Shown one piece after another: positions 4,023 through 41,395 of a stretch of 64,000 bases of DNA; positions within the stretch are counted from its first letter, which is position 1, and each line of letters starts with the position of its first letter. The notes under the pieces were generated by a model, which made no database searches, was not told the origin of the DNA, and worked only from the letters and a program-made list of their open reading frames with translations. The translations under genes and the position numbers were made by a program. The stretch covers positions 18,455,079-18,519,078 of the forward strand of contig CM049307.1 in assembly GCA_026874595.1 (NCBI GenBank), in the 5' to 3' direction. This DNA is from Sipunculus nudus. Its lineage: Eukaryota > Annelida > Sipuncula > Golfingiida > Sipunculidae.

Positions 4023-4161
4023 CGGCAGAATCTCTCCCCGAGAGAAGCAGAGTACAAACAGTCCCCATTGTTGTAACAGAAGTTCTTCATCTCTGGCTCA
4101 CAAAGCACATACTTGACATGGGGAGAATGAGTGGTTTGAGAATGGCTGACAGTTGTATTAC
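4023..4161 (-). CDS. NRG-like: EGF domain first-half exon of the neuregulin-like gene
   Basis: This 139-nt exon has a TTTTTTTAG acceptor (4164-4162) and enters in phase 1. The first 19 residues are a Ser/Thr/His-rich linker with one sequon (NTT). Four EGF cysteines follow with spacing C-X7-C-X5-C-X10-C: CEPEMKNFC, YNNGDC, and GERFC. The C-X7-C-X5-C spacing and the NNGDC motif match the neuregulin EGF domain. The exon ends in phase 2 inside the Arg codon after the fourth cysteine, so the next exon must begin with the last base of that codon followed by Cys5. That keeps the invariant C-X-C spacing only if the donor is GCAAGT at 4022-4017, a GC-AG intron. The alternative GT four bases further in transcript order (4018-4017) would insert an extra Gln. 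The partner exon with Cys5 and Cys6 was not found in the window. Confidence 0.88.
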
Positions 4162-4502
4162 CTAAAAAAACAAAAAGGAAACATTACATAACAAAGCATC
4201 AACAACACAGACACAATCTGATAATATGTGACATTAGGACCCTGACTGGTTCAGAATTTGACTTTATATATAAACTGTCCTAATAATTATAATTTATAAA
4301 AACATTTGTTTTCAAATCAAATATCTTAGTGGATATGATATAGATGGCTCGGCTTGATGTGTATGAACACATTACAAAAGATTAAACAGTGGAATAATTA
4401 AATGAACAATACACTGGTAAACTGTTTCAAATTTATCGTGACTGATTCTAAAAGCAGAATTATATACTAATTACCAAATATCTAATGATAAACATGTCTT
4501 AC
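4162..4502 (-). other. Short intron between microexon and EGF exon
   Basis: A 341-bp AT-rich intron with GTAAGA donor and TTTTTTTAG acceptor. It is much shorter than the other introns of the gene. No repeat or further exon was noticed. Confidence 0.6.
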
Positions 4503-4532
4503 CATGTGATAATGAAACTGGAACTTCCTGAA
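4503..4532 (-). CDS. NRG-like: 30-nt phase 1-1 microexon of the neuregulin-like gene
   Basis: A 30-nt interval is bounded by a strong acceptor (TTTTGTCATTTCAG) and a strong donor (CATG followed by GTAAGA at 4502-4497). It starts with two bases and ends with one base of a codon, so it inserts cleanly between the phase-1 spacer exon and the phase-1 EGF exon and adds ten residues (about VQEVPVSLSH plus a Gly shared with the next exon) without changing frame. It sits 341 bp upstream, in transcript order, of the EGF exon. Because it is 3n and symmetric it could be skipped, giving a shorter spacer. Support comes only from splice signals and phase, so this could be a chance pairing, but both sites are unusually good. 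Confidence 0.62.
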
Positions 4533-6725
4533 CTGAAATGACAAAAGCAAATTATTATTTTTTTTTTATTCTAAACAGAAATACTAATATAATCACTGAT
4601 ACCATATTCCTTTGCTTGTACAGCAACTTTTCATGGCTATTTTTGCTTGTCTCTATTGGCTCCTGTCTTAGCAAAAACACTCAAAGTAGCTAATCAATTA
4701 TTCTGGCTTCTGGGTCAAGAGGTATAGCAAAGAACACTTAGTCGGGAGAACTTGATTTAAAATCTCAACCAAGATTTTCACAAGCAGCATTCAGGTGCAC
4801 TGCCGGCTTAATGGAAGGGCTGTACTCCACAGTTGTAATTCAATCACAACTGAGTGTGCCTTGTTGGACTTCCTCATTGGTAATACCCAGCAATGGGAAT
4901 GATTACACACCCAGGGCCTGCAGGTGCAGTAATCACCAGGCCTGGTTAACACAAGGAAAAAAATGAATGGTACCCCATATTTGATTTCTAATCACTTTTT
5001 TAAGTCTCTATATTTTAGATTTATAATTTTTATTATTTAAAAAAGACCTAACATAAATATTTTTATTTTCTTTTTATCAATTTAACCAATTCTATGATAA
5101 CTGGCAAAAATATCTTGCTCTTCTTGACCATATATAATTCTCTTTCATTTTACTAACATAATCATATTTTTTGGTAACATTATGCAACCTTCATAAATAT
5201 CTTGCTTTTATAATCAAAAGAGCTAGATTTTGCTTTCATTATTTGCAGATGACCTGACATAAATATTTTACCAGATACCTGACCCAGGTCAAACTTTTAT
5301 TATTTTCCTAATACCTTACATTCACAGCTTTAACTTTCCCTTCCATGCGCCTTGACACCATCATCACAATTATTCTTTCCTTTTACTTACTTCATAACCA
5401 CTTCATCTTAAACCTTCCTCTTTCTAAAAATATACAAAGAACTTAACAAGAGATCTCTGAACAATATATAAAATGAGGACTTGATCTTATATCTGACTTC
5501 ATGAGAGATAAAGAGGGAAATCCAATATCTGTTATTTAACAGACATACATTTCTAACTTATTCGCTCTCAGTTGCCGACACTTCTAACAGAATGACAGGA
5601 ATAATGGAGGCATTGATAATAATGTTATTATATTCCTAAATTTTCTCTGTCCTCAGTTTCTCAGCAGCTGTCAGAGATGGTTGTAAATTTACAAGTGCTT
5701 TTACCAGCTAATAAAACTATGTGACAGCTAAGTTATAAGTATGCAGCATCCCTCTTGTTTGTTTAGAACTTTAAAACTTAAAGTTTTCATCATCTGCCAT
5801 CAAACAATTGAAAGTGGATTAGTGTGCAAGACCTTCACCAGATGGCCCCACATACCTTCGATCTTCTTCATGCTAAGATCCATCATTGAACTGAAGGGTG
5901 GGAAACCAGCACATATATGACAGAATGTTATGAAGTGTTTGATCAGGGAACCTCAGGGTCAGAGGTGTATAAACATCTCTTATGGTAGCCCTGGTTCAGA
6001 CTAAGGAAACCACCCAGACTATTATACCTACAAATGTAATAAAAAACCCAGGCAGACTTTTTACAATGCCCAGTAAATTGCCTATTCCACATGAGGCTAC
6101 AAATCTGTCCAATATATTTTTGTTTGATGTATGTGGCCCTGATGCTGCGGCCTAATGCTGCTCCTCTTCTGCTATGGCTCCTGGGGGTGTCATCTCAAAC
6201 AGTGAGCATCCCAGGCCACCCTGCTGTGTTCAATAAAAAGCTTCACCATTATCGGTGCCAAATTTGGCTCACCAGCTACAAACCCTGGACGATGTTGTGA
6301 TATGGCCAAACTCAAGACAAAACTATCAATATTTATGGTACGATGACAACATTTAAGGCCCTGGTTTGTTTCACTTGTATTGCTTCTCCATTGCTCCAAG
6401 GCTCTAAGACAGTTGAACCATGCAGGCTGTCAACCTCAAAATCTAAACACAAGGAAGTCATACAAATATTGAAACAGTCAAGGACCAATCCACAATGTAT
6501 CATGTGAATACGTGCCCTCCAGCCACGGCTGGATGAAGACCAGAAGTCTGAGCATCAGATTCCTGAGTTAATGCAGGGAATCAACATTTTAGACTCGTAT
6601 CTATATATCTATCATATTATAAATATACATATACCACTAAATCTGCACTGTCAGTTTGTCTCCTCAAACCAGCAGAAACAAGCCATGACACTGGGACAGT
6701 TTTGGCTTCAGTGTACTAACTAAGA

Positions 6726-7363
6726 TGACCTACAGGATGCATTCCATTTTGGGCCTTCAACTTGACAGAGTCATGGACAGCACACTGACTTACAGGATGC
6801 ACACCAATTTTGGCCTTCAACTTGACAGAGTCATGTACAGCACACTGACTTACAGGATGCACACCAATTTGGGCCTTCAACTTGACAGAGTCATGTACAG
6901 CACACTGACTTACAGGATGCATACCAATTTGGGCCTTCAACTTGACAGAGTCATGTACAGCACACTGACTTACAGGATGCACACCAATTTTGGCCTTCAA
7001 CTTGACAGTTTTGTACAGCAACTGACCTACAGGATGCATTCCATTTTGGGCCTTCAACTTGACAGAGTCATGTACAGCACACTGACTTACAGGATGCATT
7101 CCATTTTGGGCCTTCAACTTGACAGAGTCATGGACAGCACACTGACCTACAGGATGCACACCAATTTGGGCCTTCAACTTGACAGAGTCATGTACAGCAC
7201 ACTGACTTACAGGATGCATTCCATTTTGGGCCTTCAACTTGACAGAGTCATGGACAGCACACTGACCTACAGGATGCATACCAAATTGGGCCTTCAACTT
7301 GACAGAGTCATGGACAGCACACTGACCTACAGGGTGCATACCAATTTTGGCCTTCACCATGAC
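6726..7363. repeat. 60-bp minisatellite, about 10.6 copies
   Basis: The unit contains CTTACAGGATGCA, CCAATTT, GGCCTTCAACTTGACAG and TCATGTACAGCACA. Units are 60 bp except one of about 57 bp near 7000-7025. Because 60 is a multiple of three and the unit lacks stops in two frames, frames of more than 210 codons are open on both strands; the encoded 20-residue repeats are a by-product. The main unit variants differ at CACACCAATTT versus CATTCCATTTT. Confidence 0.93.
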
Positions 7364-8120
7364 AATAACTGTATATTGCCAGATCTTAGATAAAGGGTAT
7401 GGTTTTTCTTCACTTCTGTCTGCATGTCTCCCTGTTTGTTTCTTTGTCTGTTTACAAGATATCTTAAAATATTATTAAATGATTTTTTAAGCAATGTTTC
7501 ATACAGATGGGTTATGAGGTCAAGAAGTATATTAGATTTTAGAAGAAACCAAAATCATTGTCTTTTTGTATTTTGTCTTGTTGGAATAAACCATCACTGG
7601 TGGTGACATCAAGTGTAGAAATCTGGTACTATTCCGAAGTCACAATAACTCTCCATAGCTCAGGCCATGGTGTTTGTAGCTCACACACTGGATCACTTCA
7701 CATTTAGTTTATAAATCAGAATTTTTATGCTGTTAATGAACTATCTATCCTGTGAGTGCTTTCTGTCAGTTTTCTTTCAGATCCACACAATACAGCTGAC
7801 GCTCCCTGTGCTGGATTCAGTCCTGCTCTGCGACCTTGTGTACTCCTCTATAAGAGAACATCATTTTCATCCATCACTCCCTAATGGCCCTCTGGTGGGG
7901 CTGATGTACCCAGTGGTCAATACTGAGTCTCCAGCTCTCTCAGATGCTGCCCCAGCCTGCTTTATCACTTGATCCAGGTGATGCTACAGCCCTGGATGAG
8001 GCTGTTATCTACAGCCCTGTGATGGCTGCAACACAGCACAGTTCTGAGGGAGACAGGAGCTGAAGAAGCCGGCAACCATGATAAAACAGACATCTGAATA
8101 TACAGGTCAAAAGGCTGTGT

Positions 8121-8255
8121 GTGTGGCAAAGTTAGCAGCATTCCTAGAACAGCATGACCACAAAGTCTGAAAGCTCACACTGACAATGGGCAAAGTTTGC
8201 TGCATTCCTGGAACAGCACCACCACAGAGTCTGAAAGCTCCACTGACAAGGTGGC
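8121..8255. repeat. Two-copy tandem duplication of about 65 bp
   Basis: Two adjacent stretches share GGCAAAGTT, GCATTCCT, GAACAGCA, GTCTGAAAGCTC and ACTGACAA at matching spacing, with scattered substitutions. Confidence 0.6.
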
Positions 8256-9027
8256 CGGGATTCATATCTAAACAAGCTTCAAGTATATCTCTCTACCACA
8301 CCATGTTTACACTGTTAACGACTATCTTAATGTTACTGACACTGGCACTTATCACCTCTTCACCTTAGTTGACCCCTAAGACCAGGTATACACTTATTAA
8401 ACAGAATAAGTGGAACTGACCTAAAGTGTTCAAGGGAATTTCTTGGTTTCGTTCAAGAAAATCAGACATATTCCAACACAGCAAATCACTGTCCCTCATT
8501 CCAAATCATAATTTGAAATAACTGTGGACATAATTGTAAACCTAACTACTGGTAGCTGGGAAGAAATCTGAATGGCTGCAGCTGGGATAATCAGTTAAAA
8601 TTAGGGCAGCCAAAACATAATTACATTTTGGACTGAAATACATTCTTTATGCTGTGGTCTTAATACATTCCTTCTACTTAACAATTTCATTCAATCAAAG
8701 TTTCTGCTCACATGAGGAGTATTTGTCACAAACTGCCACCATGTGCTGGCACAGGGCCAAGATTTTTAAGCCATTGGATTTTACCAATCAATGGACACCA
8801 CTTCCGGGCGTTGGTGAAGTTTGAATGATTGACATGGTGCAAGTAACACACTGCTCCCCTTGTGGCAGTCTAAAGCAAATCAGATTTAGTGGAAATTTCA
8901 AGCATTTGCAGTAATAGGTTTGACATTCTATTTATAGTTTGCTGTGAATCTTAACATATGGATCATTTGTTCATAGTGTAATAACTGGATAAAACTCTAA
9001 ATATAGTCTGTTTTTATTCACAACATG

Positions 9028-10440
9028 TTTTTTTAGCTCATCACACTGACAGGCAACTGACGTATAGGAAAGGCACTTTGTCTGCATTCGTCTGACCGTC
9101 CATTAGCAGGGCACAAATCTTAACTGCTGGACCTAAAAACTTCGTAGAAATCCAGGGAAGTCAACTCCTTGGAAACAACCTGAAATAAGTTCAGTGAAAC
9201 CTATAACCTCCAAGCTATGGGGCTTGTAAATACCCCCCAGAATAAATAAAATTTGACACAAATCTTCCAGTATCTTAATAATTAATGCATGGATTGCCAC
9301 GAATCTTGCCTTTAATATTGACCATGATTAGTTTCTTCAGTTCCTAAAAACTGGTGGTGCCACCTTTTTCTATTTTTTACGATTATTTTTCTGTTTTTGA
9401 GACGGTCAAATAGCAGCAATAATGTCCGTTTCTCAGCCATGGTTTAATCCAATATCCTGAGACCATGGTGTTTTTTGATTATGATTTGTTTTTTACAGTT
9501 CCTGAAGATTAGGAGCACCACCTGCATTTCTTTTATTTTTTATACATTTTTCCTTTATTTTGAGACTGCCAATTGATATTGATACTATCAGATTCACAAC
9601 TGTGGTTTCATCTGTGTCCTGATTTCTTGCGTTGTTTATTAGGGCCCCGTTTGAATAAGCGGATGCTTATAATAAATTACCCTGTCTGTCTGTTCGTCTT
9701 TCTGTTTGTCCATCAAATTTGTTCCTGAAGATAACTCCAATTGAGACTGAATTTCAAACTAGACTTACATATGACCCATCTCTAACGCAAGAACTCTATT
9801 GATATTGGGGTTGTGAGGTCAAAGGTCAAGGTCACAGGACCCACATATAGAAAAATTGTGGATGTATTTCAAGCCAAACTTTTCATCCCCAACCTTCCTT
9901 CTTGCTCATATAGCTGACCTGCCAATAGGAGAAGAACCTGACTGATTTTGTGGTCACAAGTCAAAGTTCAAGGTCACAGGGGAACATTTGTCAGCAAATT
10001 AGTTTCCAGATAAGAACTCCAATTTGGATTGACATAACTACTGGTTTCAAACTTGACTTATATATGACCCACAATTAATTTAACAACCCTTTCGATTTTA
10101 CGGTCATGAGGTCAAAGGTCAAGGTCACAGGACTAACTTCTTTAACAAGATTGTGGATGTATTTTAAGCCCAACTTTTCATCCCAAACCTTCCGTCTTCC
10201 ACATAGCGCACCTGCCAATATAGGAAGGTTCCTTTAGATTTTTGGGTCATTAGGTCAGAGGGTCAAGGGCACAGGGCCCATCCATTCACAAATTAGCTTA
10301 TGGATGATAACTCCAGTTTGGGAAGAGAATTTAGCTTCAAACTGATCACAGGACCAATATTTTGAAAGAGCTCATAAACCTATGCTTTAAGACAAATTAA
10401 ATTTAGCTGAGCGTTGAGACCCATGGTTCCCTAGTTTTAA
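9028..10440. repeat. Modular interspersed repeat with AGGTCA half sites
   Basis: Related modules of a few hundred bases repeat phrases such as AGGTCAAAGGTCAAGGTCAC, GTGGATGTATTT, AAGCC-AACTTTTCATCCC and ACCTGCCAATA. Two modules (9816-9834 and 10109-10127) carry three consecutive AGGTCA half sites; two more (near 9956 and 10251) are decayed. The flanks have TTAGCTCA/AGCTGAG-type ends similar to other repeats in the window. It looks like a composite of old non-autonomous elements; I cannot name the family. Confidence 0.65.
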
Positions 10441-12019
10441 TATATGATTCTATTTTGACACATTACATTATTTGCCCCAGGCATTTGTTCTGAAAACCCT
10501 TTGAAGTTACAGACATTGGGATATGTCTAAGAAATCTTCAATTATTGATTGATTTATAGGATGGAGCCTCAATGCTCAGATGTATGAACAGTTACAGGGA
10601 ACAGGACAAAAGTTCAATCAAGTCTGCATGCCTGGGGCACATCTGTCACCTTGAGACTGATGGCTTAAGGACATCCAGCAGTTGAATATTGAATTACTCA
10701 GTATTTATGTCCAAAAAGCTTTACAAATAATCATATTAGCAACAATTTGCTTACACTTCAAATTCAGAGAAATTTTTGTGCACAATTTAATAATAACCAT
10801 TTATCAAATTTTCAAAGGGCAATTCAGATCATAAATTGACTATTTCATTTATCGTCATAATAATCCCAAGACAGGTTGCATATACATGAATATTTTCCAG
10901 ATAAAGTCTAGTCTTTTGGTTGATTTCCCTCTCTTCTGGAGCCAGACAGATATTCCTCACATGAGCATCTCCTGATCAATATTTTAAAATCCCATTTTAG
11001 GGTCGTAAGTTGAGCCATATCAGCTCCACTAAGACTGTACTTGTTTGTATGCCATTGTCATCAATCCAAATGTGACCAGCATTTTTATCTCCAGATAATG
11101 GATTTTTAAACATAAAACTTCCATACTATACGAAATGATGTTATCAAGAGGGCCTTCATTTAAAACAAAGGACTGGGCCACACACAAAAAAATTTGTTCT
11201 AAGGAATCAGGGCTCTTATTTTTTTGCAGCTGAAAGATTTGTGCTTGTATGTGCACAAAGCTCTAGGTTATGTATTGATTGTGCATTGTTTGTTGATCCT
11301 GCTCAATTGAAGTAAACAAAAAGGTACAATGGAAAATCGACAAAACTTTGTATTGGTAATAAAAACTTTTAATGAATTTCAGCATGCATATTTTTTTTTC
11401 TTCCAGAATACTGGCAAAAGTTTTGATTTGACAGGTTAATTACCTTTGAATTCTAAAATTTGATTTTTAAAAAGTATTCCTGCATTATCCAGGGATCTGC
11501 AAAATTATTTTTTCATGCAGCCTTATCACTGTAGAAACACTCCCTCACTGCTGAGGCATCAGATTTGAAAGAACTCTCTCCAATTAAGACAATTTGTCTC
11601 TCTAGACAAAGCATTTAGCAGCCTTAAAATAAAGCTTACTGATAATACCCCCATGGCTTCCTTATATACCTATCAATTTACAAAGCACAGCACATAACTT
11701 TTGATGAACCTTGAAATATTTTTGTTTCGTGGCTGCTGACTGCATGAAGATTCATAAACTTTTTTGTCCTGTATATAATACAAAAGTGTTAATTATAAGA
11801 ATATACGTGCTAATACAGGTAAGACATTTAAAATAGGGAATTAGGGTTCATTAAAGTATTTTATACCTGAAGCATTAAATAAAACAACCGTCAACAGTCC
11901 AGTAATATATTGAGATATTTGAATACTACTAGCCACATATGTCTAGTACAAATAAGAAAAGTGTCACACAGTTACATTTAACAAATATTAAGCTTCCATT
12001 TGTATTTCAGATGACATAG

Positions 12020-12600
12020 TGCTTGCAGCCTTTGTTCCTCTGTGTTTGCTCTTGTTTTGTCTATGGCAGCTACAGCAGTGTCTTCACTCCCTTCCATCTG
12101 TGTCTGCTCCAGAGGTGTCAGGTCAAACCAATATTCACTGAAATCAGCTGTTTATAGATCAAAACTATCTCTTTCCCATCTATGTCTTGTCCCTGCAAAC
12201 TATATTATCTGATTCTGACCTAGCAGTTTCAAGTCCACTGCCACCTGCATTTACCTGTGTATGTCCAGCTGTATCTGGAGCCACCTGCATCTGTAGGTGT
12301 GTGCTCCAGCCCTGTCAGGCACCACCAGTGTCTGTCTGTGTGTGCTAAGGCTCTAAGACACTGTGCATGTCTTTGTGTCTTTCACTGTGTGCACAGTTGT
12401 GGAAGGTGCAACCAGTGTATGTCTGTATGTGTTCCAGCTGAATCAGGCACCTCATGTGTATCTCTTTAAGTAATGAACCTGTGTCAGGCACCACTTGTGT
12501 CTGTCTGTGTCTGCTCCAGCTGTGTCAGATGATACCTGTGTCTATGTCTTCTCTAACTATATCAGGTGACACCTGAGTCTCTGTTCCAGCTGATCAGATC
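12020..12600. repeat. Degenerate GT/CAGC-rich minisatellite
   Basis: Irregular repetition of TGTCTGCTCCAGCTG, TGTCAGGCACCAC and GTGTCTGTCTGTGT, with a unit of roughly 55-80 bp and heavy divergence. It opens a short cysteine-rich frame that has no other sign of coding. Confidence 0.6.
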
Positions 12601-13260
12601 CAAACCATTCCATTGTTCATACACCGTAAATGGAATCAAGAATTTTGATTTGCATCTCTGTATTGTATGGTAATGACTACCAGGAATAAACCTTGGGTTT
12701 TTTAGGGTAATTTGAGAGGTGACAGGCTTTGACTTAGCAGCACAGACTCCCTGTGACTAGAGAACCTTTCACAAAAGCACTGCCAGTTTGCCACCCTTAC
12801 AAATTCTGGCTGGTGCCCTAGTAAAGACGCAGGATATAAATTTAGAAGTACAAAATTGATCTGCCTGATCTGTAATCCACTCATCCCCTTTGGCTGGCTG
12901 CTGGCTTGATTCGATTCTGGCACTCTCGGTGTGCAGTGCTGCTAAATATTTCAACACAAACATTGACAACATCTATGTCAGCAGATCAAACAGAAGCAAC
13001 AGTTACAACCACATATAATGTCTGACTGTGACTTGTATTGTTTGTTCAGGAATATTGAACTTCTGGTCATCTAAAAGCTTCAGACCCTGTTGATGCATTA
13101 TATCTTCAAAGCAAAATATTGATATGTTAAAAAAAAAAGATTATGTGACAGTAGTGATTCACATGTGCAGTGAAAAAATTAGTATATCAAATTATGTCTA
13201 ACCTAATTTACACTAATTTAACACACCATGTAGTGGAACATAAAACCACATGCACTGTGC

Positions 13261-15783
13261 TGTGGTCAGCCTCAGTTACTACAAGTTAAGCAACACTAAA
13301 TATAACCCTGCACCATTTCAGTTTCAATTCTCAGTTTCAGTTCTGGTTTTGTAATTTCTGAAAAAAGGTCAATCTATGGCAGCTATAGCAGTGTCAATTC
13401 TCAATTCCAGAACTTCCCAGATTCAAACATCATATTAGTGTGGTCAGCCTCAGTTACTACTAAAGTAACACTTAATATATCCTGCACTGTTTCAGTTTCA
13501 ATTCTCATTTCAAGGAGTTCCCAGATTCCAACATCATATTAGTGTGGTCAGCCTCAGTTACTACATATGTAACACTAAATATAACCCTGCACTGTTTCAG
13601 TTTCAATTCCCATTTCTAGGAGTTCCCAGATTCCAACATCATATTAGTGTGGTCAGCCTCAGTTACTACATATGTAACACTAAATATAACCCTGCACTGT
13701 TTCAGTTTCAATTCCCATTTCTAGGAGTTCCCAGATTCCAACATCATATTAGTGTGGTCAGCCTCAGTTACTACTTAAGTACCACAAAATATAACCCTGC
13801 ACTGTTTCAGTTTCAATTCTCATTTCTAGGAGTTCCCGGATTAATACATCATATTAGTGTGGTCAGCCTCAGTTACTACTTAAGTACCACAAAATATAAC
13901 CCTGCACTGTTTCAGTTTCAATTCTCATTTCTAGGAGTTCCCGGATTAACACATCATATTAGTGTGGTCACCCTCAGTTAATACATATGTAACACTAAAT
14001 ATAACCCTGCACTGTTTCAGTTTCAATTCTCATTTCTAGGAGTTCCCGGATTAACACATCATATTAGTGTGGTCAGCCTCAGTTACTACTAAAATAACAC
14101 TTAATATAATCCTGCACTGTTTCAGTTTCAATTCCCATTTCTAGGAGTTCCCAGATTCCAACATCATATTAGTGTGGTCAGCCTCAGTTACTACATACGT
14201 AACAGTAAATATAACCCTGCACTGTTTCAGTTTCAATTCTCAGTTTCAGTTCTGGTTTTGTACTTTCTGAAAAAAAGTCAATCTATGGCAGCTATAGCAG
14301 TGTCAATTCTCAATTCCAGAACTTCCCAGATTCAAACATCATATTAGTGTGGTCAGCCTCAGTTACTACTAAAGTAACACTTAATATAATCCTGCACTGT
14401 TTCAGTTTCAATTCTCATTTCTAGGAGTTCCCAGATTCCAACATCATATTAGTGTGGTCAGCCTCAGTTACTACATATGTAACACTAAATATAACCCTGC
14501 ACCATTTCAGTTTCAATTCTCAGTTTCAGTTCTGGTTTTGTAATTTCTGAAAAAAGGTCAATCTATGGCAGCTATAGCAGTGTCAATTCTCAATTCCAGA
14601 ACTTCCCAGATTCAAACATCATATTAGTGTGGTCAGCCTCAGTTACTACTAAAGTAACACTTAATATAATCCTGCACTGTTTCAGTTTCAATTCTCATTT
14701 CTAGGAGTTCCCAGATTCCAACATCATATTAGTGTGGTCAGCCTCAGTTACTACATATGTAACACTAAATATAACCCTGCACTGTTTCAGTTTCAATTCC
14801 CATTTCTAGGAGTTCCCAGATTCCAACATCATATTAGTGTGGTCAGCCTCAGTTACTACATATGTAACACTAAATGTAACCCTGCACTGTTTCAGTTTCA
14901 ATTCCCATTTCTAGGAGTTCCCAGATTCCAACATCATATTAGTGTGGTCAGCCTCAGTTACTACTTAAGTACCACAAAATATAACCCTGCACTGTTTCAG
15001 TTTCAATTCTCATTTCTAGGAGTTCCCGGATTAACACATCATATTAGTGTGGTCAGCCTCAGTTACTACTTAAGTACCACAAAATATAACCCTGCACTGT
15101 TTCAGTTTCAATTCTCATTTCTAGGAGTTCCCGGATTAACACATCATATTAGTGTGGTCAGCCTCAGTTACTACTTAAGTACCACAAAATATAACCCTGC
15201 ACTGTTTCAGTTTCAATTCTCATTTCTAGGAGTTCCCGGATTAACACATCATATTAGTGTGGTCAGCCTCAGTTAATACATATGTAACACAAAATATAAC
15301 CCTGCACTGTTCCAGTTTCAATTCTCATTTCTAGGAGTTCCCGGATTAACACATCATATTAGTGTGGTCAGCCTCAGTTACTACTAAAATAACACTTAAT
15401 ATAATCCTGCACTGTTTCAGTTTCAATTCCCATTTCTAGGAGTTCCCAGATTCCAACATCATATTAGTGTGGTCAGCCTCAGTTACTACATATGTAACAG
15501 TAAATATAACCCTGCACTGTTTCAGTTTCAATTCTCATTTCTAGGAGTTCCCAGATTCAAACATCATATTAGTGTGGTCAGCCTCAGTTACTACTTAAGT
15601 AACACTTGATATAATCCTGCACTGTTTCAGTTTCAATTCCCATTTCTAGGAGTTCCCAGATTCCAACATCATATTAGTGTGGTCAGCCTCAGTTACTACA
15701 TATGTAACACTAAATATAACCCTGCACTGTTTCAGTTTCAATTCCCATTTCTAGGAGTTCCCGGATTAACACATCATATTAGT
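13261..15783. repeat. 105-bp satellite array with higher-order structure
   Basis: About 22 units contain GTGTGGTCAGCCTCAGTTAC, TATAACCCTGCACTGTTTC and TTCTAGGAGTTCCC. Unit starts at 13542, 13647, 13752, 13857, 13962, 14067 and 14172 are exactly 105 bp apart. Three long units of 175-178 bp (starting near 13261, 14172 and 14452) carry an extra segment containing TCTATGGCAGCTATAGCAG. Subtypes recur in the same order about 1.19 kb apart. The 105-bp period keeps a plus-strand frame open (145 and 180 codons), but this is repeat-driven. Confidence 0.95.
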
Positions 15784-19808: not shown

Positions 19809-20175
19809 AATGGCATTTTTTCTGTGGACATTATGTCCTGTGGCATTTTTTCTGTGGACATTATGTCCTGTGGCATTTTTTCTGTGGACATTATGTCCTG
19901 TGGCATTTTTTCTGTGGTTATTATGTCCTGTGGTATTTTGTCTGTGGATATTATGTCCTGTGGCTTTTGTTGGTGGACATTATGTCCTGTGACATTTTTT
20001 CTGTGGACATTATGTCCTGTGGCGTTTTGTCTGTGGATATTATGTCTTGCGGCATTTTGTCTGTGGATATTATGTCTTGTGGCATTTTGTCTTTGGACAT
20101 TATGTCCTGTCCATTTTTGTCTTTGGACAATAGGTTCTGTCCCATTTTGTCTGTGGACATTATGTCTTGTGGCAT
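19809..20175. repeat. 30-bp minisatellite, about 12 copies
   Basis: The unit reads approximately TGGCATTTTTTCTGTGGACA then TTATGTCCTG. The first three copies are identical and later ones vary (TTTTGTC, GGATATT, TTGGACA). The 30-bp period leaves several frames open on both strands, giving 10-residue repeats such as MPQDIMSTEK on minus. A decayed relative may lie at 54282-54440. Confidence 0.93.
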
Positions 20176-22006: not shown

Positions 22007-22135
22007 CTGTGGCTGAGACATTTCCTGAGTCTAGTGTAATATTGGCAGGTGATTCAGTGGTAAAGTAAGTATAGTTCTGTATAAATTCAAGAGTGTCATT
22101 CAACTGTATCCATCCTGTAGTATTGTTTTCATTCC
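22007..22135 (-). CDS. NRG-like: N-glycosylated spacer exon of the neuregulin-like gene
   Basis: This 129-nt exon is phase 1 at both ends. Its acceptor reads CATACCTTCAG and its donor GTATGT (22006-22001). It encodes about 43 residues between the Ig and EGF domains with little predicted fold: many Asn, Thr and Ser, and six N-X-S/T sequons (NNT, NTT, NDT, NYT, NIT, NVS). Vertebrate neuregulins have a comparable Ser/Thr-rich glycosylated linker at this place. The open frame continues upstream of the chosen acceptor, so the exact 5' edge rests on the phase match and on the pyrimidine-rich acceptor. A second AG lies 21 nt into the exon and another 11 nt beyond that, so the start could shift by a few codons. 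It is the least family-specific of the exons, but phase and content fit. Confidence 0.7.
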
Positions 22136-24464: not shown

Positions 24465-24467
<3 letters not shown>

Positions 24468-27635: not shown

Positions 27636-27649
27636 TAATTACAATAAAT

Positions 27650-29290: not shown

Positions 29291-29406
29291 CTGCAATGGA
29301 AATTTCTTTTTCAACTGTTCCTAACACATTCTCTGCTATGCATTTGTAAAATCCCGAGTGGTTGGAGTTGAAATTCTTAATCTGTAGTCGAGAACCTTTT
29401 CTATAT
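29291..29406 (-). CDS. NRG-like: Ig domain exon B of the neuregulin-like gene
   Basis: This 116-nt exon has a pyrimidine-rich acceptor (CTGTCTTTTAG, ending at 29407) and a GTAAGC donor at 29290-29285. It enters in phase 2, completing a Gln codon with exon A, and leaves in phase 1. Its 38 codons form the second half of the Ig domain: the E-strand SRLQIKNF, then HSGFYKC with the F-strand Tyr-X-Cys signature, then IAENVLGT and the G-strand. The usual Asp of the D-X-G-X-Y-X-C motif is His here. The cysteine pairs with Cys23 of exon A, giving one complete domain of about 90 residues, normal for an I-set fold. Splitting one Ig domain over two exons with a phase-2 junction and phase-1 outer borders is common for Ig domains. 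Confidence 0.87.
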
Positions 29407-31891: not shown

Positions 31892-33345
31892 AACTAGAAT
31901 ATGGGTAGTCAACAAGCGACTACGAGTATCCGCCAAAATCAGAGTGGAACATGTGAAGCATGGATTGAGTGGCAAAGGGAAATAGTGTGAGGTGTGTTGC
32001 ATATTAGCAGCGGAAATGTGTATGTAGGTTGCGCCACCTACTACAAATCCAGAAAGCTGTCAGAGCTGTATTAATATGCAAAATTTTAGGCAGAAAAGTC
32101 AAACCACTACATGTATACGAGTGATTTTATCCCACAGCAGAAAAACAGAAAGACTTGTGCAAAAATGGTGGCAGGTAGCACCACGAATTTTGTTTATGAT
32201 TAAGAGCTATGTGAGATCTATACACATGCAAAATTTCAGGGGGATATGTCAAACCATTCCTGAGATATAAACCTGAATGTCTGCAGTTTTAACAAATGTA
32301 GGTGGCGTGACCTGCCAAAAAAATTGAGAAAGCTATCTAAGATGTATAAACACACACAATTTCTAGGCAGATAAGTCAAATCACTACAGAGATATGAGTG
32401 ATTTTAGCCCACAGCAGACAAACAGACAGATGCTGTGCAAAAACGGTTGCAGGTGGCCCCTCCAGTATTGTGTATAATAAAGAGCTATGTGATATCTATA
32501 CACATGCAAAATTTTGGCCCAATTGGTCAAACGGTTCCCAATGTTATGAGCTTGAATGTCGGCAGTGTAAACTAGATTGTAGGTGGTGCCACCTGTCATA
32601 AAATCAAGAAAGCTGTCCAGGATGTATAAACCTGCAAAATTTTAGGCAGTTATGTCAAACCACTACAGAGATATGAGTGATATTAGCCCACAGCAGACAA
32701 ACAGACAGATGCTGTGCAAAAATGGTTGCAGGTGGTCCCTCCAGTATTGTGTATGATAAAGAGCTATGAGAGATCTATATACATGCAAAATTTTGGCCCA
32801 ATCGGTCAAAAGGTTCCCGAGATATGAGCTTGGATGTCTGCAGCATAAACTAGAATGTAGGTGGCGCCACCTGTCATAAAATCAAGAAAGCTGTCCAGGA
32901 TGTATAAAACTGCAAAATTTTAGGCAGATATGTCAATTAAACCACTGCTGAAATATGAATGATATAATCCCACTGCAGACAAACAGACTGACGCTGTGCA
33001 AACATGGTTGCAGGTGGTGCCACCATTTTTTTTGGTATTTTATATAGCTATCCAACAGCTACATTTGTACAAAAAACTTTCCTGATCAGTCAATAGTTCC
33101 CGAGAAATGTGGGTTTATGTATGGAAACAGACGCACAAATGGACGCTGGGCAGAGAGGAAAGGTCAGAGGTCAATACAAATTGGTTAGGCACCAGTTAAC
33201 ATGTGAACTGATAATTGGTGTAAGTTTTGGAAAAATCTGTCCAGTAGTCTCAGAGGAGTTCTCTGGAAACAAACACTGCGGCGGTGGCGGCAGCGGAACC
33301 CGGTCAAAAACATAGTATCCGCAAAACTTCATTTTGGCGGATACA
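31892..33345. repeat. Modular repeat copy 1 (about 278-bp units, inverted ends)
   Basis: Four modules start at GTAGGT-GGCGCCACC-like phrases (about 32024, 32298, 32579 and 32857), each with CATAAAATCAAGAAAGCTGT, ATGCAAAATTTTAGGCAG, GTCAAACCACTACAGAGATA and CACAGCAGACAAACAGACAG. TATCCGCCAAAAT at 31927-31939 is the exact inverse of ATTTTGGCGGATA at 33331-33343. A second copy lies at 54865-56033 in the same orientation. No transposase is seen. Confidence 0.85.
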
Positions 33346-36300
33346 ATTACACATGACACATACCTCTGGCAAAGATTATCAGCTGCAATCAACGCATGCA
33401 TGCGTTTATCGCAGACTTTGAGTCCTGCTCAATTTTTGCAATTAACGCACCCGTTAAACGCACAAGACGTGAAATCAGGGAATCCCTCACTTCCATTACC
33501 AATATATTAATATTAAAGTTCATTGAAGGGGAATAACTGTAGGGAAGCATCATCATGTCTATAACACTCAACATGAATCTAATTGTGTATCACTGAAAAA
33601 TAGCAACAATGCTTTTGATGCAATAAAACTTGACATTTAAAGTGGAAGCAAAAGAAAGCCTTATAAGCACGGGCGCCAGGACAATTATTTTTGTGAGGGG
33701 GATGGAGTCCTATCCCATATTAATTTAATTAAAACATAATTATTCGTTATATTTTACTGAAAAATTGAAATTACTCTCTTTTCTATTTAGAGTATTACCT
33801 AAATTGTTTATCAATGTCATATCTAGTGATCATATGTTAAACAATTCTTCATTGGGAATGTTACCTGTAAACATCAAATATGTGCCAAAATCACACTGCC
33901 TTTTATGCTTGAAAAAATCTCTTGTGTGACTTTGCCACAGAAACGTCTATGGTTATTAAATGTTATTTTTGAACTCTTTATGTGTAAGAAATGTAAAGTG
34001 ATTTCTTCATGTATAAATGGATCTAGTCCATGAGATTAAGGATATGTCTCCTGGATTACAGGCACTTCCTGTTTATTTCATGAAGGTAACCATGGAGCTC
34101 CTGCAGCTCAAAGACAAAACACATTTACACATTCCTTGTTATGCAAATCATGTTATGTAGCAAAATACCTCAAATTTACCTAGAGCTTTATGTTTCAATT
34201 TCAACAGTTAAATACTTACTTATAAAACACGTTACTCAGTATTTCAGTCAGAATATATATCTTCAGGGTTTAGGTAAAATAAACAACTTTGCTTTCAGTT
34301 AAAGGCATTTTATTGCTTATCACAGAGCAAGTCATATTTTTCTTTTACTATAGAAGAATTTTAACAAAATTATTTATTATTATGAAAGATTGATAAATTT
34401 TTCACAAATTACATATGAAAAACAATTATTGTCTGGAGTACATAGTTAAAATATTTATATTATATGACAAATATTATCAAAATATTTAAAACAAGATTTC
34501 TGGTTTCAAAATATACAGCAACTGGATTGTATTTAACAAAAAGAGTACTTAAAGCATGCAAGAATTGAAGACAGAAGAGCATTTCAAAAGTTAACATTGC
34601 ACCCTAAAGAATCAATAATAACATCACACTGTGTTCTGAAAATGTATGTTTCATCTGGATATTTGTGGGACAAGAACTAGCTAGGTACCACTTTCAGTGG
34701 TCCTCTGTATGGAAGCAATGAATAATTTATGTTTGGCCAAAGTATTCCTGTAGACTAGTTTGGAATGCCTCGTTAAACACACCCTTTGTGTACTGGATAC
34801 TAGGATTCAGATTCCCTTGGGGGTATCCCAGAAGCCCCAGCATATTTAACAGTAATTAACCTCCATCAATACTTGACATCTCTACCTGCAGGTCATCTTG
34901 GTGCTGCAGTGGGACTGTACATTCCTCAGTCTAATACCACTAAACATGTCTGTCTTCAGGCAGTTTGTCTGGTCACAGACACAAAAAACTTGGTTACCAT
35001 GAGTGTACGTAGCAGGAATCAATAGAGGCAACATGGGCAGCTAACTAAACGCTGGCTACGATCTTATTCACAAGCCGGAGGAAAGAAAATTGTTATCTGA
35101 TTAAAGCACGGACCTTGTGGCTCTTGCTAGCTGCCTGGACTGCTAATTATAACAGTCTACTTCATCGATTCATCAGCTCTGTTTCCTGATAGTTCTGCGT
35201 GATCAACAAGTTCTGCCCCCCCCCCCAACAAGCAAGCTTCCAGCTACTGTTACTCTGCCAATCAGCACAGCATGAACAGCTGTTGACAAGACAGTTCTAT
35301 TTCCTGTCAATGCTGTTGACATACTGAGACTGAGGGTCTGCCAGCACCATGGTCAGAGGCTGTTATTGCTGAAGTGAAAGTGTGCAGGACACTCAAGGCT
35401 AAGCCAGGGACTGTGAAAGACACAATTCAGTAATTGCTGCGGTCAACATTAATTTCACTACCAAACACGAAATGACATATTAATGACCCCAGTGGCTCTT
35501 ACCATGGGTTAATTAACTCCATGGGTGTTAATAGCTCATGGGCAAAAACAGCTTGTACTGAGCAAAACAACTGTATCCAGTTCAATGTTATAGCTTAGAC
35601 ATACATATGTTTAACTTATAGGTCATTGTAAGTGATCCTAGAGTTATGCCATTTCTACCAGCCGTTCTAATAAAAAAAAGTGTCCGCCAGAGTTTTTTTT
35701 AAATTCAGTGTGAGCTGAGTATTAGTTTATCAAGAGAAGATCAAGATCACATGTCGGACTTGTGACAAATACAGCATTAATATTCACTGACAGTAAAGTA
35801 GACAAATTGCCGACCAGAAGGGTTGAAGGAAAAAACTACATGTGAAAGGTGATAAACTCTGTTGCACACTTCATGTGCAAATTGTATGTTGCTTAATGCA
35901 GACCAAAAAGTTCAATGATATCAGAGAAGGACCATGAAATTAACAGGTTATATTTGAGCTCTCTCTTTGTCTCCCCATTGTTACTCATTATAATACCACA
36001 CAGTTCAGTTAGAGCTCTTCCTCTTGGTATATACTGGTATACTCAGTAATTTCAGATGATCTGTCTTTTCTATAACTGAACACCTTCTGCAGGCACCATT
36101 TCTCCCGCTACCTACTCTTGACACTTCTGACGTTCGCTCTGCATGTCTACAGACCTACTGACTCTGTCCTCTTGATATTCAGCCAATGTTTTGGCTGATC
36201 TAGCTGTTTATGCTGATATTCAGTGAGGCTGATTTTAGGAGCTGCATCTGTGGTATTATTCCTGCTGGTTTGCCTCATGTGAAGCTGCAGGAATCAAATT

Positions 36301-38469
36301 GATTATTCCATGGTCAAATATGACTTTAACCCTGGTGGAATCGTTCCAACAGTGAAGGCTGAACAGTCAGACCAACACCTCTCCAGGGACCATCCCTGGT
36401 TTGTCCTCATTTTAGCCCTGCTTCCTGCCTCCTCCCTATACTGCAGCAGCAGAGTCCGGACATTTATCAGTGCTGTCATTTCTCCTCACCAGCAAGCTAG
36501 ACGTTATACCCATAACAACATCATCTTTTTTGCTAGTTACACTGAATCAAGTACTTCAGGAAACAAACATTACTATGGCAAATGATTATCTAAATTTTCT
36601 TTACAGAAGATATCATTGCAGAAAAAGCTAATTGTTCATCTTTCCTTTTTTAATCAAATAAAACAAATTAATAGTAAAATTAGTCACACAAACAATTTTG
36701 ACTAGGTTGCCCTTTTCTGGGTAAAGACCAGACTGAAACTAGTCAATGTACCTTGAAAAACTGAATATACATAGGCATTTTATGTCTTACAATGTCCTTC
36801 ATTTTATAATGATTAAATTTATTATAAAAAAAATTAAATTACCCCCTGCTATTTTAAGCCTGTCTCATTTTATATACAATTAATATAAATTATAAAATAC
36901 TATATAAATTGTACTTTAAATTTGTCTATAATGAATGGCTATTCATGGCTTAATCTTTTTTCTGTTACATTCCTCTGTTTGTCATTTCTGACTATGAAAT
37001 TATATTCAAAACATGTAGATTACGTACGACTTGGATTAAACTTAAATTAATTTGTACAGATATTTGCCATAACGTGTGGGGACAGTGAGAAAAAATGCAT
37101 AACATACTAAATAAATCAATGTATGATGGCATTATGCATTATTTTTCATTCATTATAATTGTGTATAAATGTGTATATAGAAATATTCCACTCCTCAGAA
37201 TCAAGTATGTGTAAGGAAAAAGAGGAAACCTCATGAGTATGTGAGAGACAAGTCCTTGACTACTACAAATTGGACAGTGTGTGCACACTTCCTGTGAGGG
37301 ATCACATTCTTGTAACTCCCCCATATATGTCAAGACCGCCATTAAATTATCATAGAGCATTACTCAAATATCAGGCACAATAGATAAATACGTAGGAGTA
37401 TATGAGTGGGTGGAGGTACACTTCCCCAATTATTAAGACCAGTCCATTTTATACATGGAAGTCAACTTATCTTCCGCTGGCCTCTTATTGACTATTGGCT
37501 CTAGGCACACCCAGAATGTACTGAGTAGTTATCAGTTTACCTTGGTTATCTCAACACAGATCAAAATAACCCTTGTGTTAAAGTGCACCTTTTATAAGAT
37601 CAGTAGTTTGTAACTGCAATATATATGTTTATTCAATACTGGTATGTTTAATTTTTCTATCACTTGGCATAATAATTATATTTACCGGTATCCTTAATAT
37701 AAATCTAATCCACCTCATTCATTGCTTCCTGTACATTTTACTTTAAATCTGAATAACTGTATTTTTTCTAAAAGTATTCAAATATCATACACAGAGACCA
37801 TAAAAAGACTTTGAAACATTCTAAATGTCCACAGGCCTTATTTAAAGTCACATGCCAAAGTTACATTTAAAATTGCATTTTAATTTACAGATGATTAGAA
37901 CAGCCCCAAAAGACCATTATAGCCATATTCTATCTGATATGTCACTTGCATACAAAAAGAAACTTAATTTCTCTGACTTGATAAACAATGCAAATAGACA
38001 TTCATGCTATATTCACCTTCTTTCAGCCTGAGCTACATAGAACTTAACCTCCTGTTTACCATATCAGCCCTGAGATACAAGTATTTATGAGGTGTTAACA
38101 AATACAGGAGCTCTGTTTATGACAGTGTGTGTGAGCAGTCAACATAAAACAATAGCACATGTAATCTCAGGTATGCCAGTGTTCCCTCTGCTGTTCATAA
38201 TTTTGCAGTCTTTACATTCTTGGCACCTGGTATGCATTTTAGATTTTGTGTCCTTGATCAATTACTGTCATTCTAAACGCTTTACAAAATAGTCCACTGA
38301 AATACATTGTTCATGTATACAATACAAATGTATGTATACAATAAAGCTTTACTTATTTGACAAATGTGGTATTTATGGGGCATGGTCATTCTAAACATAA
38401 AGTAAACCTGTCTTACTAGACCTCCTGTCTAAAAGCATTCACAATGGATCTTATAAATGACCTGTTTAA

Positions 38470-38540
38470 TAAGACCATCTGCAAATTCAGACCACTTTTG
38501 GCCAGTCCCACAGGTGGTCTCATAAGTCATAACACGGGTT
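38470..38540. repeat. Palindromic repeat copy (second copy near 1271-1310)
   Basis: GACCACTT-TGGCCAGTCCCACAGGTGGTCTCATAA is shared with 1271-1310. Each copy can fold on itself through AGACCAC and GTGGTCT, suggesting the tip of a MITE. Confidence 0.6.
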
Positions 38541-38814
38541 TCACTGTATATTAGACACATCATTGATTGATATATAGAAAGATTTCTGGTTTATCATCAA
38601 CTGCTAATTAAAGATGATATATAGTGATTTACAATTTTATCACTGTTAGTTATTTGGTTAGTTTGTTTGGTAACACCTTGACCTTAAAAGTTACAATCAG
38701 ACTTTGTTTAAATTCTTTGGACAATTAAGTGATAAAGAAAGAGCAGTATATTATTTGTGGAGTTTACTGGATTAACATGTTATGTTTTTTAACTTAAATG
38801 TTGCCACTGTAATC

Positions 38815-38990
38815 TAGGTCAATTTGTTTACATCAAATTTTGATGAAGGCCACTTTAGTTCTGGTGGGAAGAGCTGACATGTGATGTAACCATTAAGCTG
38901 GTGAACTGTGAAACATGTGATCTCAGCTTGCATTAATTGACTTACATACCATACCCCAGAGTATGATCAAGAGTCCACTAATATTCTGTT
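38815..38990. repeat. Dispersed repeat pair, member 1
   Basis: The phrases TTCTGGTGGGAAGAGCTGAC, TGTGATGTAACCA, AACATGTGATCTCAGCTT and TGATCAAGA-TCC-TAATATTC line up with the stretch at about 48225-48395. An old interspersed repeat of unknown family. Confidence 0.55.
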
Positions 38991-41238
38991 GAGTCTCTAG
39001 GTGTTCTCTAGTTATCAAAGTATTTCCTTATGTTTTACAAAAGTATAAAATTATTCAACTGAATAAATGCAGGGGTTAGAATTAAATTTTCAATATTTGA
39101 TCATCAATGTCATGTGCTTTGTAATGATAATCAGGGTTAATTCTTCTTGACACTGTATGTCTGAGCCCTCTATGACAGATTTGGGACTCTATTTTATGTG
39201 CTTTATATAATAAACATCTGATTGACCGTTTAGTTTTAAGAGTGCTGGTAAGCAGAGAATCTGAGCAGCATAAATTGTCTATGCTTGGAATAATACAACC
39301 CTGATTGGCTGTCTGGGTTTTGAAGTGCAGCAACGTAGAAAAACACATACGTTATCACTGTCCAGGGTGTGTGGATAGTTTAGCAAAGTCTAGCAAATAT
39401 TTCATGTCATAATTTTTTACAGTCCTCTGCGGCACAGAACAGCTCAGTTTTTGAGCTGGCCAGATTTAAATCAACTTCATTTCATGAAGTTGCCCTGTTT
39501 TCAGATATATATTTGTGCATTTTCTTATCTATATTCCAAATTGTCCAAAATGTTTTTAAACTATTCTTTGTGTGAAAGGGATGCATACTACAAGGAGATA
39601 GTATGCATGGCTGTGTGTTTTTTATTTGTATTTTGACAGTAATACTGACAATAGCATGTAACTTATAAACTTTACATCAGTTTTCAATGAGTACTTGTGA
39701 ATTCCTTAAATACTAATGTTATTTGAGAAAGTTCACTCAATATTTAGCTGCATCCAGCAATATGTGAAAGGCCAGATGCAATTTTTTACACTCAATACAC
39801 GTTTTGACATGTAGCTTTAAACAATGAAACAGCCAGGCATAAAAAATCACAAATAATTATGACTCTTATTTTCTACTTGAAAAGTGCCTCTACAGCATCT
39901 GGAAACTGATGACCATGGCATTTTCACCAGAATAATAAATTGTCTAGACTGAGATAGCTGTAGACAACAAACCCTTAGCTGTTATTTTGCTGACATTTGA
40001 AAGCTACACAAATGGAAAAAAAATGAACTAATCTTCTGAGGCCTTTTCACTGTTATTATGTGAAATATGAATTGATAACCTGGGCTACAGTATTATCATT
40101 TCACTGTGACTCTAAAACTTTGTTTCATGTAAATGAAGATCAGGATGCATAAATATGCCTTGTAATGTTATGTTTCTATAAATATGTTAGATTTACTGAC
40201 AGTAAACCTTTGACATGCCTCGTGATAATGCATGGATATGTGTAGAGGATTTGATGATATATGTAAGCTGCTCTTGCTGACCAGTCATTTAACTGGAAAG
40301 TGGTCACTTTTGCTATCTGCAAATCACCTCTCGGCAGTCCATTTTGGTTGATGCACATGTCGAGGACATGGGTATGTACATAGGGACACAGTTCACCAGA
40401 TCACACAGTTCATACTATAATAGAAGTTACATTTTTCTCCATGATGGACTATGAATGAAAACCAGATTGGTGGATATACATGGAAACACAGCTTTAAGCT
40501 TCTAAAGCAGTCGTGATGAAATGCTAATTACTCTTTCCATTCTGTAGCACTGACTGACCAATATTCAGCCGAGCTAAAAATATATTATGGCCATTTCAAG
40601 GAAAGATATTTATATCAAGATCTGTTCGTGATCAAAGGAAGATCCAAGAAGAAAAAAGACATAATGGCCATTTCAAAGAAAAATATTTTATATAAAGATA
40701 TGTTACAGAAGCTAGACAGCAAAGAAAAAAGACAGAATGGCTATTTAAAAAAACAGATATTTTTTAATCAATTTATGTTACAAATAAGTACTTTACAGAT
40801 GCTGAATATCACTGTGACATTGACCAAGTCATGAACAACTGTAAAAAATTAAAACTACACATGTCTAAGCGAAACAGTCAGACATAAATTTTAAAAACTA
40901 AAATTACAGTTTGCTACACATGAAAGAATGCCCTGACAATTTATTGAGAATCCAAATATAGTTCACACATTATAGGTGCATAGTGGCTGGTCCTAATACT
41001 AAAGAGTTGTGCAAATTATTTTGGATGCAAATAATTTTAAATACAAACTCCTTATTTTTTTAATTATAAATTTTATACTTATTAGTCAATGATACATGCA
41101 CTTAGAAGTATACTGTTTTTTTTTCTGATTAAAGCTCCAAGCAGGTATAAAATATAATGTAACATTAAATAAACTAAAATGAAAGGGTTATGGACCATGT
41201 AGGTCATACAATATGTTAGTAGAAAATGCAGAACTTAC

Positions 41239-41395
41239 TGTTTGACCCTCATTCCTGGCTGTCTCCTGAACTCTTTATTTCGGAAGAACCATTTTATATT
41301 AGGCTGAGGAGACCCTTTCACGATACACTTCAATACTATTTTATTCCCATGCTCCTGTTTACCATCAACCTTCAATTGCACTGTTGGTTTTGATG
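41239..41395 (-). CDS. NRG-like: Ig domain exon A of the neuregulin-like gene
   Basis: This 157-nt exon enters in phase 1 after an acceptor ending TTACAG (41396-41398 read as CAG) and leaves in phase 2 at a GTAAGT donor (41238-41233). It encodes 51 whole codons, forming the N-terminal half of an I-set immunoglobulin domain. Visible landmarks are the B-strand cysteine in IVLKC at residue 23, the proline-containing B-C loop GSPQPN, and the C-strand tryptophan in IKWFF at residue 35. The phrase NKIVLKC...KWF closely parallels the same stretch of neuregulin Ig domains. The partner cysteine is supplied by the next exon at 29291-29406. No ATG start is assigned because the exon is internal. In neuregulins the Ig domain binds heparan sulfate; the exon here is rich in Lys and Arg, which would fit, but that is inference. 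Confidence 0.85.

What the first reader, a model, noticed from the sequence alone, without database searches (positions are those of the whole stretch)
4023..41395. A neuregulin/Vein-like ErbB ligand gene hidden in five tiny exons over 37 kb
The exons (157, 116, 129, 30 and 139 nt) are all too short to appear as notable ORFs, yet all four junctions agree in phase and the joined protein reads Ig, glycosylated spacer, EGF. The EGF half has the neuregulin cysteine spacing C-X7-C-X5-C. If confirmed, it is a protostome ErbB ligand with the vertebrate-like Ig-spacer-EGF order and possibly the same intron position inside the EGF domain.
Basis: partly seen in the sequence, partly recalled or inferred. 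Interest (0 to 1): 0.75.

Follow-up and report, generated by a model that had tools for sequence, protein, structure and literature searches.

The report
Complete neuregulin gene in a lophotrochozoan
The five tiny exons are real and belong to a ten-exon neuregulin gene, a cell-surface growth signal already known in many animals, which here seems to carry a second, alternative end for its receptor-binding domain much like the one mammals use.

Summary
Confirmed, and larger than reported. The five minus-strand exons (157, 116, 129, 30, 139 nt) exist at the stated borders with agreeing phases. They are internal exons of a ten-exon, 126-kb gene that runs off both sides of the window. Outside it I found a first exon (signal-like start plus Pfam NRG2_N, 7.6e-8; the only over-cut-off match returned for the 1.43-Gb genome), the second EGF half, a transmembrane exon of 103 nt (same length as the mouse Nrg1 TM exon), a basic juxtamembrane exon and a terminal cytoplasmic exon. 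The model is a 713-aa type I membrane protein: NRG2_N, Ig, glycosylation-rich spacer, one EGF, TM, tail. It meets a published ErbB-ligand signature; it is a membrane neuregulin, not a secreted Vein. Such ligands are in print for many bilaterians, oyster included: a new member of a known kind. The least expected point is in the window at 2208-2141: a second, phase-compatible 68-nt exon for EGF cysteines 5-6, as in mammalian alpha/beta exons, lacking the Arg before cysteine 6. Splicing is inferred; no RNA was available. The vertebrate intracellular neuregulin domain was not detected.

The parts
41239..41395 (-). Exon E1, 157 nt, phase 1 to 2: first half of the Ig domain. Preceded by exon E0 outside the window (G000:C2:18571358-18570932, minus, 427 nt: start codon, signal-like peptide, NRG2_N domain).
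   Evidence: E0
29291..29406 (-). Exon E2, 116 nt, phase 2 to 1: second half of the Ig domain (HSGFYKC)
   Evidence: I-set 6e-16 with E1
22007..22135 (-). Exon E3, 129 nt, phase 1 to 1: spacer rich in N-X-S/T sequons
4503..4532 (-). Exon E4, 30-nt microexon, phase 1 to 1: spacer
   Evidence: best of 59 candidates by splice score
4023..4161 (-). Exon E5, 139 nt, phase 1 to 2, GC donor: end of spacer and EGF cysteines 1-4
2141..2208 (-). Candidate exon E6a, 68 nt, phase 2 to 1: alternative EGF cysteines 5-6, (R)CHKDFVGRQCQLLKIPGIDETR. Its counterpart E6b (71 nt) and exons E7 (TM, 103 nt), E8 (145 nt) and E9 (825 nt to the stop) lie left of the window at G000:C2:18454710-18454640, 18453309-18453207, 18449225-18449081 and 18445829-18445005.
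   Evidence: E6a; E6b-E9
2013..2018 (-). AATAAA downstream of the in-frame stop (TAG 2135-2133) that follows E6a if its donor is not used; possible poly(A) signal of a secreted form
   Evidence: read in the sequence; not tested

Best explanation
This is a neuregulin gene of a lophotrochozoan; no second copy was found. It encodes a type I membrane protein: signal-like peptide, NRG2_N domain, one I-set Ig domain, a spacer with seven N-X-S/T sequons, one ErbB-ligand-type EGF module, a TM helix, and a cytoplasmic part of about 320 residues that begins basic and ends acidic and Ser-rich. Most likely the precursor sits in the membrane, is cut in the short stalk between EGF and TM (as known for vertebrate neuregulins; inferred), and the EGF module binds an ErbB-type receptor of the species. 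Splicing most likely chooses between exons E6a and E6b for the C-terminal third of the EGF module and stalk, so that ligand strength or receptor choice is set by splicing; E6a, with Gln instead of Arg before cysteine 6, should be the weaker binder. Shown here: gene anatomy, domains, phases, receptor-type exons. Inferred: splicing, cleavage, binding, isoform strength.
For: Pfam NRG2_N on E0 at 32.9 bits (cut-off 27); of 3 NRG2_N matches returned for the genome (5 candidates scored) the only one over the cut-off is E0, upstream of E1 on the same strand and in the right phase. I-set 6e-16. EGF part (104-aa query with TM): best PDB matches are epiregulin 6.8e-6, NRG1 9.2e-6, EGF 4.6e-5. ErbB-ligand signature of Stein and Staros (PMC1618406, passages): splice site between Cys4 and Cys5, EGF near TM, Arg before Cys6: met with E6b. 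E7 is 103 nt, as is the mouse TM exon E103; 139 and 68/71 match E130 and E68/E59 modulo 3 (PMC3176322, passages). tblastn of recalled NRG1 over 134 kb, both strands: best two hits are E7 and E5. Collinear BLAST with recalled NRG2 5e-29 and NRG1 1e-20. GC 45.4% in E1-E9, 35.6% over their span. ErbB-type receptor exons at two places on C16, one tested against PDB. E6a: the strict exon pattern fits only E6a and E6b in 134 kb, both strands; adding E6a to E5 moves the NRG1 match from 0.38 to 1.1e-4.
Against: No RNA evidence for any junction. Pfam EGF models barely see the module (EGF_2 0.26; none up to E = 1 in the full protein). E1 and E2 were not among the 14 tblastn rows printed for NRG1, and the Ig alone hits titin and neurofascin best. 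The tail has no Pfam match, PF02158 included, and the recalled NRG1 tail hit E9 only at 0.048. Splice sites of E6a, E6b and E8 are weak. The E6a test used thresholds set after seeing E6a; a stricter first test recovered neither E6a nor E6b. The best non-ligand is an ant venom peptide at 5.3e-5.
Confidence: 0.93

Rival explanations
1. A secreted Vein-type ligand: Ig and EGF without membrane anchor, as in Drosophila.
For: Same Ig-EGF order; read-through of E6a or E6b meets a stop within two codons of the exon end, and an AATAAA follows E6a, so a soluble form is possible.
Against: A TM exon, a basic juxtamembrane exon and a long open terminal exon follow in phase; TM plus juxtamembrane resembles recalled NRG1 above shuffles (37.0 bits, maximum of 200 shuffles 21.2).
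Confidence: 0.04
2. An Ig-EGF adhesion or matrix protein that is not an ErbB ligand.
For: Ig domain alone matches cell-adhesion proteins best; Pfam EGF scores are weak.
Against: NRG2_N on E0, ErbB-ligand EGF matches, splice site between Cys4 and Cys5 next to the TM, single EGF.
Confidence: 0.03
3. E6a is a decayed duplicate of E6b, or a chance stretch, that is never spliced in.
For: It lacks the Arg before Cys6 and its splice sites are weak.
Against: Open frame, both cysteines, F-x-G core, exact entry and exit phases and length class; it completes the EGF match nearly as well as E6b.
Confidence: 0.3
4. E6a is used as a 3' terminal exon, giving a soluble Ig-neuregulin, rather than as an internal alternative exon.
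For: TAG starting at the sixth base of the intron and AATAAA 115 bases further; soluble '3'-stalk forms are known in mammals (PMC3176322, passage).
Against: A GTATGT donor in the phase that E7 needs; AATAAA is common in DNA this AT-rich.
Confidence: 0.2

Closest known systems
Vertebrate neuregulin 2 and neuregulin 1 (type II, GGF, from memory)
   Same: NRG2_N domain, one I-set Ig, spacer, EGF with C2-X5-C3, intron between Cys4 and Cys5, TM exon of 103 nt, basic juxtamembrane stretch, two candidate exons for Cys5-Cys6
   Different: No match to the intracellular Neuregulin domain PF02158; no separate 24-nt stalk exon found; E6a lacks the Arg before Cys6; vertebrates have four genes, here one was found
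Spiralian NRG-type ligands (Crassostrea gigas NRG-like, Schmidtea Smed-nrg-1; Barberan et al. 2016, PMC4914847)
   Same: Ig I-set, EGF and TM architecture
   Different: Exon anatomy, NRG2_N and alternative EGF exons are not in the passages and the one section I saw; no sequence could be compared here
Drosophila Vein
   Same: Ig then EGF; splice site between Cys4 and Cys5 (PMC1618406, passage)
   Different: Vein is secreted; this gene has TM and tail exons

Membership tests
NRG-type EGF ligands (definition of PMC4914847) | Immunoglobulin I-set domain | tested here: met
   6e-16
NRG-type EGF ligands (definition of PMC4914847) | A single EGF domain | tested here: met
   Six cysteines X7-X5-X10-X1-X8; ErbB ligands best in PDB; Pfam EGF models below cut-off
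NRG-type EGF ligands (definition of PMC4914847) | Transmembrane region | tested here: met
   Exon E7, 103 nt, read by eye
ErbB ligands (signature of PMC1618406) | Splice site between cysteines 4 and 5 of the EGF module | tested here: met
   E5/E6 border
ErbB ligands (signature of PMC1618406) | EGF module close to the TM segment | tested here: met
   25 residues
ErbB ligands (signature of PMC1618406) | Arg directly before cysteine 6 | tested here: inconclusive
   met with E6b (GPRC), not met with E6a (GRQC)
ErbB ligands (signature of PMC1618406) | Binds and activates an ErbB receptor | not testable with these tools
   receptor-type exons found at two places
Vertebrate NRG1/NRG2 subfamily | NRG2 N-terminal domain (NRG2 and, from memory, type II NRG1) | tested here: met
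   PF25518 7.6e-8, above cut-off
Vertebrate NRG1/NRG2 subfamily | Intracellular Neuregulin domain (PF02158) | tested here: not met
   no match of E9 or the full protein or genome-wide (its control rang nowhere, so weak); hence not filed in this subfamily
Vein (secreted) | No TM segment | tested here: not met
   E7

The most novel reading that the evidence does not exclude
A lophotrochozoan neuregulin makes two receptor-binding EGF forms by choosing between two C5-C6 exons, the design of the mammalian NRG1 alpha/beta exons; one form lacks the receptor-contact arginine and may be a weak or blocking ligand. If the exon pair is old, alternative EGF ends were already part of the neuregulin of the bilaterian ancestor.
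Probability: 0.5. Interest if true: 0.65.

Novelty: new member of a known kind. Interest (0 to 1): 0.42.

Why it matters
The gene suggests that the domain set of NRG2/GGF, and the intron phases through EGF and TM, are shared by a lophotrochozoan and vertebrates, so the plan would predate their split. The second C5-C6 exon makes it testable whether alternative EGF ends, a control point of neuregulin signalling in mammals, are ancestral or arose twice. It is also a caution: a gene of tiny exons spread over 126 kb is easily missed, which may be why surveys miss members in some species (Barberan et al. list none for the limpet Lottia; my inference).

Tried and rejected
Vein reading: rejected because TM and tail exons follow. 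A tail-like exon at C2:18427929 looked like the NRG1 C-terminus from memory, but it lies beyond the stop of E9; assigned to an unidentified neighbour. First-exon searches over 52 kb upstream gave only tandem-repeat candidates (4) or nothing convincing by eye (9 donors); fetching 50 kb more gave E0 as the top of 9 candidates. Whole-genome search for paralogues with the E5-E8 peptide: 18 matches of 19 candidates; 4 are this locus (E <= 6.4e-9), next C7:30747745 at 2.8e-4. I looked at the next three only (C7 twice, C11): they show several EGF-like stretches and no E7-like TM in the 1.2-2.1 kb fetched; the other 11 were not looked at. Alpha/beta class test: after Cys6 E6a scores closer to alpha and E6b to beta, but contrast P = 0.37 in 5000 shuffles (single tests 0.65 and 0.44), so no claim of one-to-one homology. 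First chance test for E6a with donor score >= 3 found neither E6a nor E6b; repeated with thresholds at E6a's own scores: in the real 134 kb, both strands, the strict pattern fits E6a and E6b only, and one plus-strand site fits the loosest pattern; in 60 second-order Markov sequences of 134 kb the strict pattern fits 0 times, C-X8-C 0.117 per 134 kb (0.005 in the E5-E7 gap). PF02158 search: nothing, control silent. Haemocyanin marker: nothing, control silent. A source for vertebrate Ig-exon lengths was not found. Papers on alternative EGF exons in invertebrates or on mollusc neuregulin: searches listed none that I recognised as describing it; lists were capped (15 of 54, 12 of 349), so this is weak. 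Rfam and tRNA scans of the window: 0 and 0. No structure prediction or fold search was run.

Full report
What was checked. The window is G000:C2:18455079-18519078 of a 1.43-Gb assembly. The five minus-strand exons of the finding were rebuilt from the sequence. E1 and E5 were read directly. E2 and E3 were picked from all open AG-to-GT/GC stretches of the stated length and phase: one of 20 reads as an Ig second half and one of 15 as a sequon-rich spacer. The 30-nt E4 is first of 59 by splice score, 11.8 against 4.0 for the next. Joined, they give 189 aa with all phases agreeing and an I-set match of 6e-16.

The gene continues on both sides. To the left, E6b (71 nt, EGF cysteines 5-6) and E7 (103 nt, TM) follow in phase. 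E8 (145 nt, KRRKEFYRKRQRKL...) was the best of 15 phase-2-to-0 candidates in its gap; its splice sites are weak. E9 is an 825-nt open terminal exon with its stop ending at 18445005; the recalled NRG1 tail hit it at only E = 0.048. To the right, no convincing first exon was found within 52 kb, but 50 kb more gave E0 at 18571358-18570932, top of 9 candidates. E0 has an ATG, a hydrophobic leader, donor GTAAGG and exit phase 1. Pfam names it NRG2_N at 7.6e-8, 32.9 bits against a cut-off of 27 (4.5e-7, 30.5 bits within the full protein). A genome-wide NRG2_N search scored 5 candidates and returned 3 matches; only E0 is over the cut-off. From E0 to the stop the model spans 126 kb and ten exons and codes for 713 residues, or 712 with E6a in place of E6b (whose printed 714 and 713 count the stop). 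Untranslated ends and any further exon between E0 and E1 are unknown.

What kind of protein. Order: leader, NRG2_N, Ig, spacer with seven N-X-S/T sequons by reading, EGF, TM, basic stretch, acidic Ser-rich tail with a PPSY motif by reading. The EGF part matches ErbB ligands best among solved structures: epiregulin 6.8e-6, NRG1 9.2e-6, EGF 4.6e-5; an ant venom peptide at 5.3e-5 and Notch at 0.0012 follow. Spacing between cysteines 2 and 3 is five, as in the NRG1 alignment and unlike the epiregulin alignments of that output. Against recalled human sequences BLAST is collinear: NRG2 105 bits, 5e-29, NRG1 79 bits, 1e-20. Piecewise against NRG1 the real bits and shuffle maxima are Ig 28.1/25.0, EGF 38.1/22.7, TM plus juxtamembrane 37.0/21.2 (200 shuffles each); the Ig is nearer to NRG2 (55.1 bits) than to NRG1 (28.1), and E0 against NRG2 gives 28.5 with a maximum of 20.4 in 150 shuffles. 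A tblastn of recalled NRG1 over 134 kb of both strands put E7 first and E5 second, E6b fifth; E1 and E2 were not among the 14 rows printed. Pfam EGF models see the module poorly (EGF_2 0.26; none up to 1 in the full protein), and the Ig alone hits titin and other adhesion proteins best in PDB.

Published criteria. Stein and Staros 2006 (PMC1618406, passages seen) define ErbB ligands by a splice site between cysteines 4 and 5 and an EGF module near the TM, and note an Arg before cysteine 6 in verified ligands other than tomoregulins. The E6b form meets these. Barberan et al. 2016 (PMC4914847, passages, Table 2 in part and one section) define NRG-type ligands by Ig I-set, EGF and TM, found them only in bilaterians, one in Crassostrea gigas and none in Lottia gigantea. 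So the kind is known. The vertebrate intracellular Neuregulin domain was not detected, so I do not file the gene in the vertebrate NRG1/NRG2 subfamily. Nrg1 exon lengths (PMC3176322, passages): core EGF 130, EGF alpha/beta 68/59, stalk 24, TM 103. Here: 139, 68/71, none found, 103; the four comparable exons agree modulo 3. Vertebrate Ig-exon and juxtamembrane lengths that I recall would agree too, but I found no source.

A second EGF end. Between E5 and E7 a further candidate exon, E6a (window 2208-2141, 68 nt), fits entry and exit phases and encodes (R)CHKDFVGRQCQLLKIPGIDETR. With a pattern of acceptor, C-X3-[FYW]-X-G-X2-C and a phase-1 donor, at thresholds set to E6a's own splice scores, only E6a and E6b fit in 134 kb of both strands; 60 second-order Markov sequences of that length gave none. 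An earlier, stricter run found neither. E5 alone matches NRG1 at 0.38 and epiregulin at 0.05; E5+E6a at 1.1e-4 and 3.4e-5. This is the layout of the mammalian alpha and beta exons. Whether E6a equals alpha and E6b beta could not be shown (P = 0.37). E6a has Gln where verified ligands have Arg; Arg to His at that place in EGF lowers binding (PMC1618406, passage). Read-through of E6a meets TAG at 2135-2133, with AATAAA at 2018-2013, so a soluble form is a rival use.

How it most likely works. A membrane-held precursor, cut in the stalk, whose EGF module binds an ErbB receptor; splicing of E6a or E6b sets its strength or target. Receptor-type exons (GF_recep_IV) lie at two places on C16; three of seven matches are over the cut-off (its control rang below the cut-off in one bacterium). 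The exon at C16:21667351 is closest to Drosophila EGFR (4.9e-14), then ErbB4 and ErbB3; the other place was judged by eye only. Cleavage, binding and splicing are inferred from the known family.

What animal. A homeobox search with a recalled Lox5 sequence gave 14 matches at E <= 1e-12, 9 of them on C12 between 56.4 and 58.3 Mb; of the six loci read, one carries a KLTGP parapeptide, a lophotrochozoan Lox5 mark from memory. C1q is abundant (141 matches of 150 scored, 203 candidates). This fits a bivalve-like mollusc but does not prove it.

Verdict. The gene is a new member of a known kind; the alternative EGF end is the part worth following.

Noticed in passing
G000 contigs C60, C61, C62, C66, C72, C74, C75, C89 (two places), C123: The assembly holds bacterial contigs: nine places with nearly equal scores for a 577-578-aa open frame of cytochrome oxidase subunit I, and a different one on C123. 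The C60 protein is at most 58% identical to any of the 80 GTDB loci kept, so the associates look unnamed and may come in several strains.
   Followed up: partly
G000:C2 about 18428040-18427790 and about 18426270-18426110, minus: Coding-like exons downstream of the neuregulin stop (DIHEEGPRSKKTLDF..., EPRKKKPRQEAVVENGDDDFEITPPPSP...), an unidentified neighbour gene.
   Followed up: partly
G000:C2 about 18593180-18591000, minus: LRR-like and TIR-like open frames in several pieces upstream of E0, possibly a broken Toll-like receptor copy; judged by eye from an ORF list.
   Followed up: no
G000:C2 about 18529000-18526300, minus (intron 1): Pieces resembling LTR-retroelement gag, reverse transcriptase and integrase inside the 74-kb first intron; seen in the ORF list only.
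   Followed up: no
window 6726-7364, 13389-15783, 19811-20175, 32022-33017, 44128-44666, 60834-64000: Long tandem arrays (units 60, 105, 30, 278, 23/86 and 39/153 bp); they underlie many of the long open frames of the window. A similar-looking 274-bp unit recurs at 54987-55672.
   Followed up: no
G000:C14:50430013 and C14:50409812: Two weak, below-cut-off NRG2_N-like matches (E 0.2 and 0.26) on opposite strands 20 kb apart.
   Followed up: no
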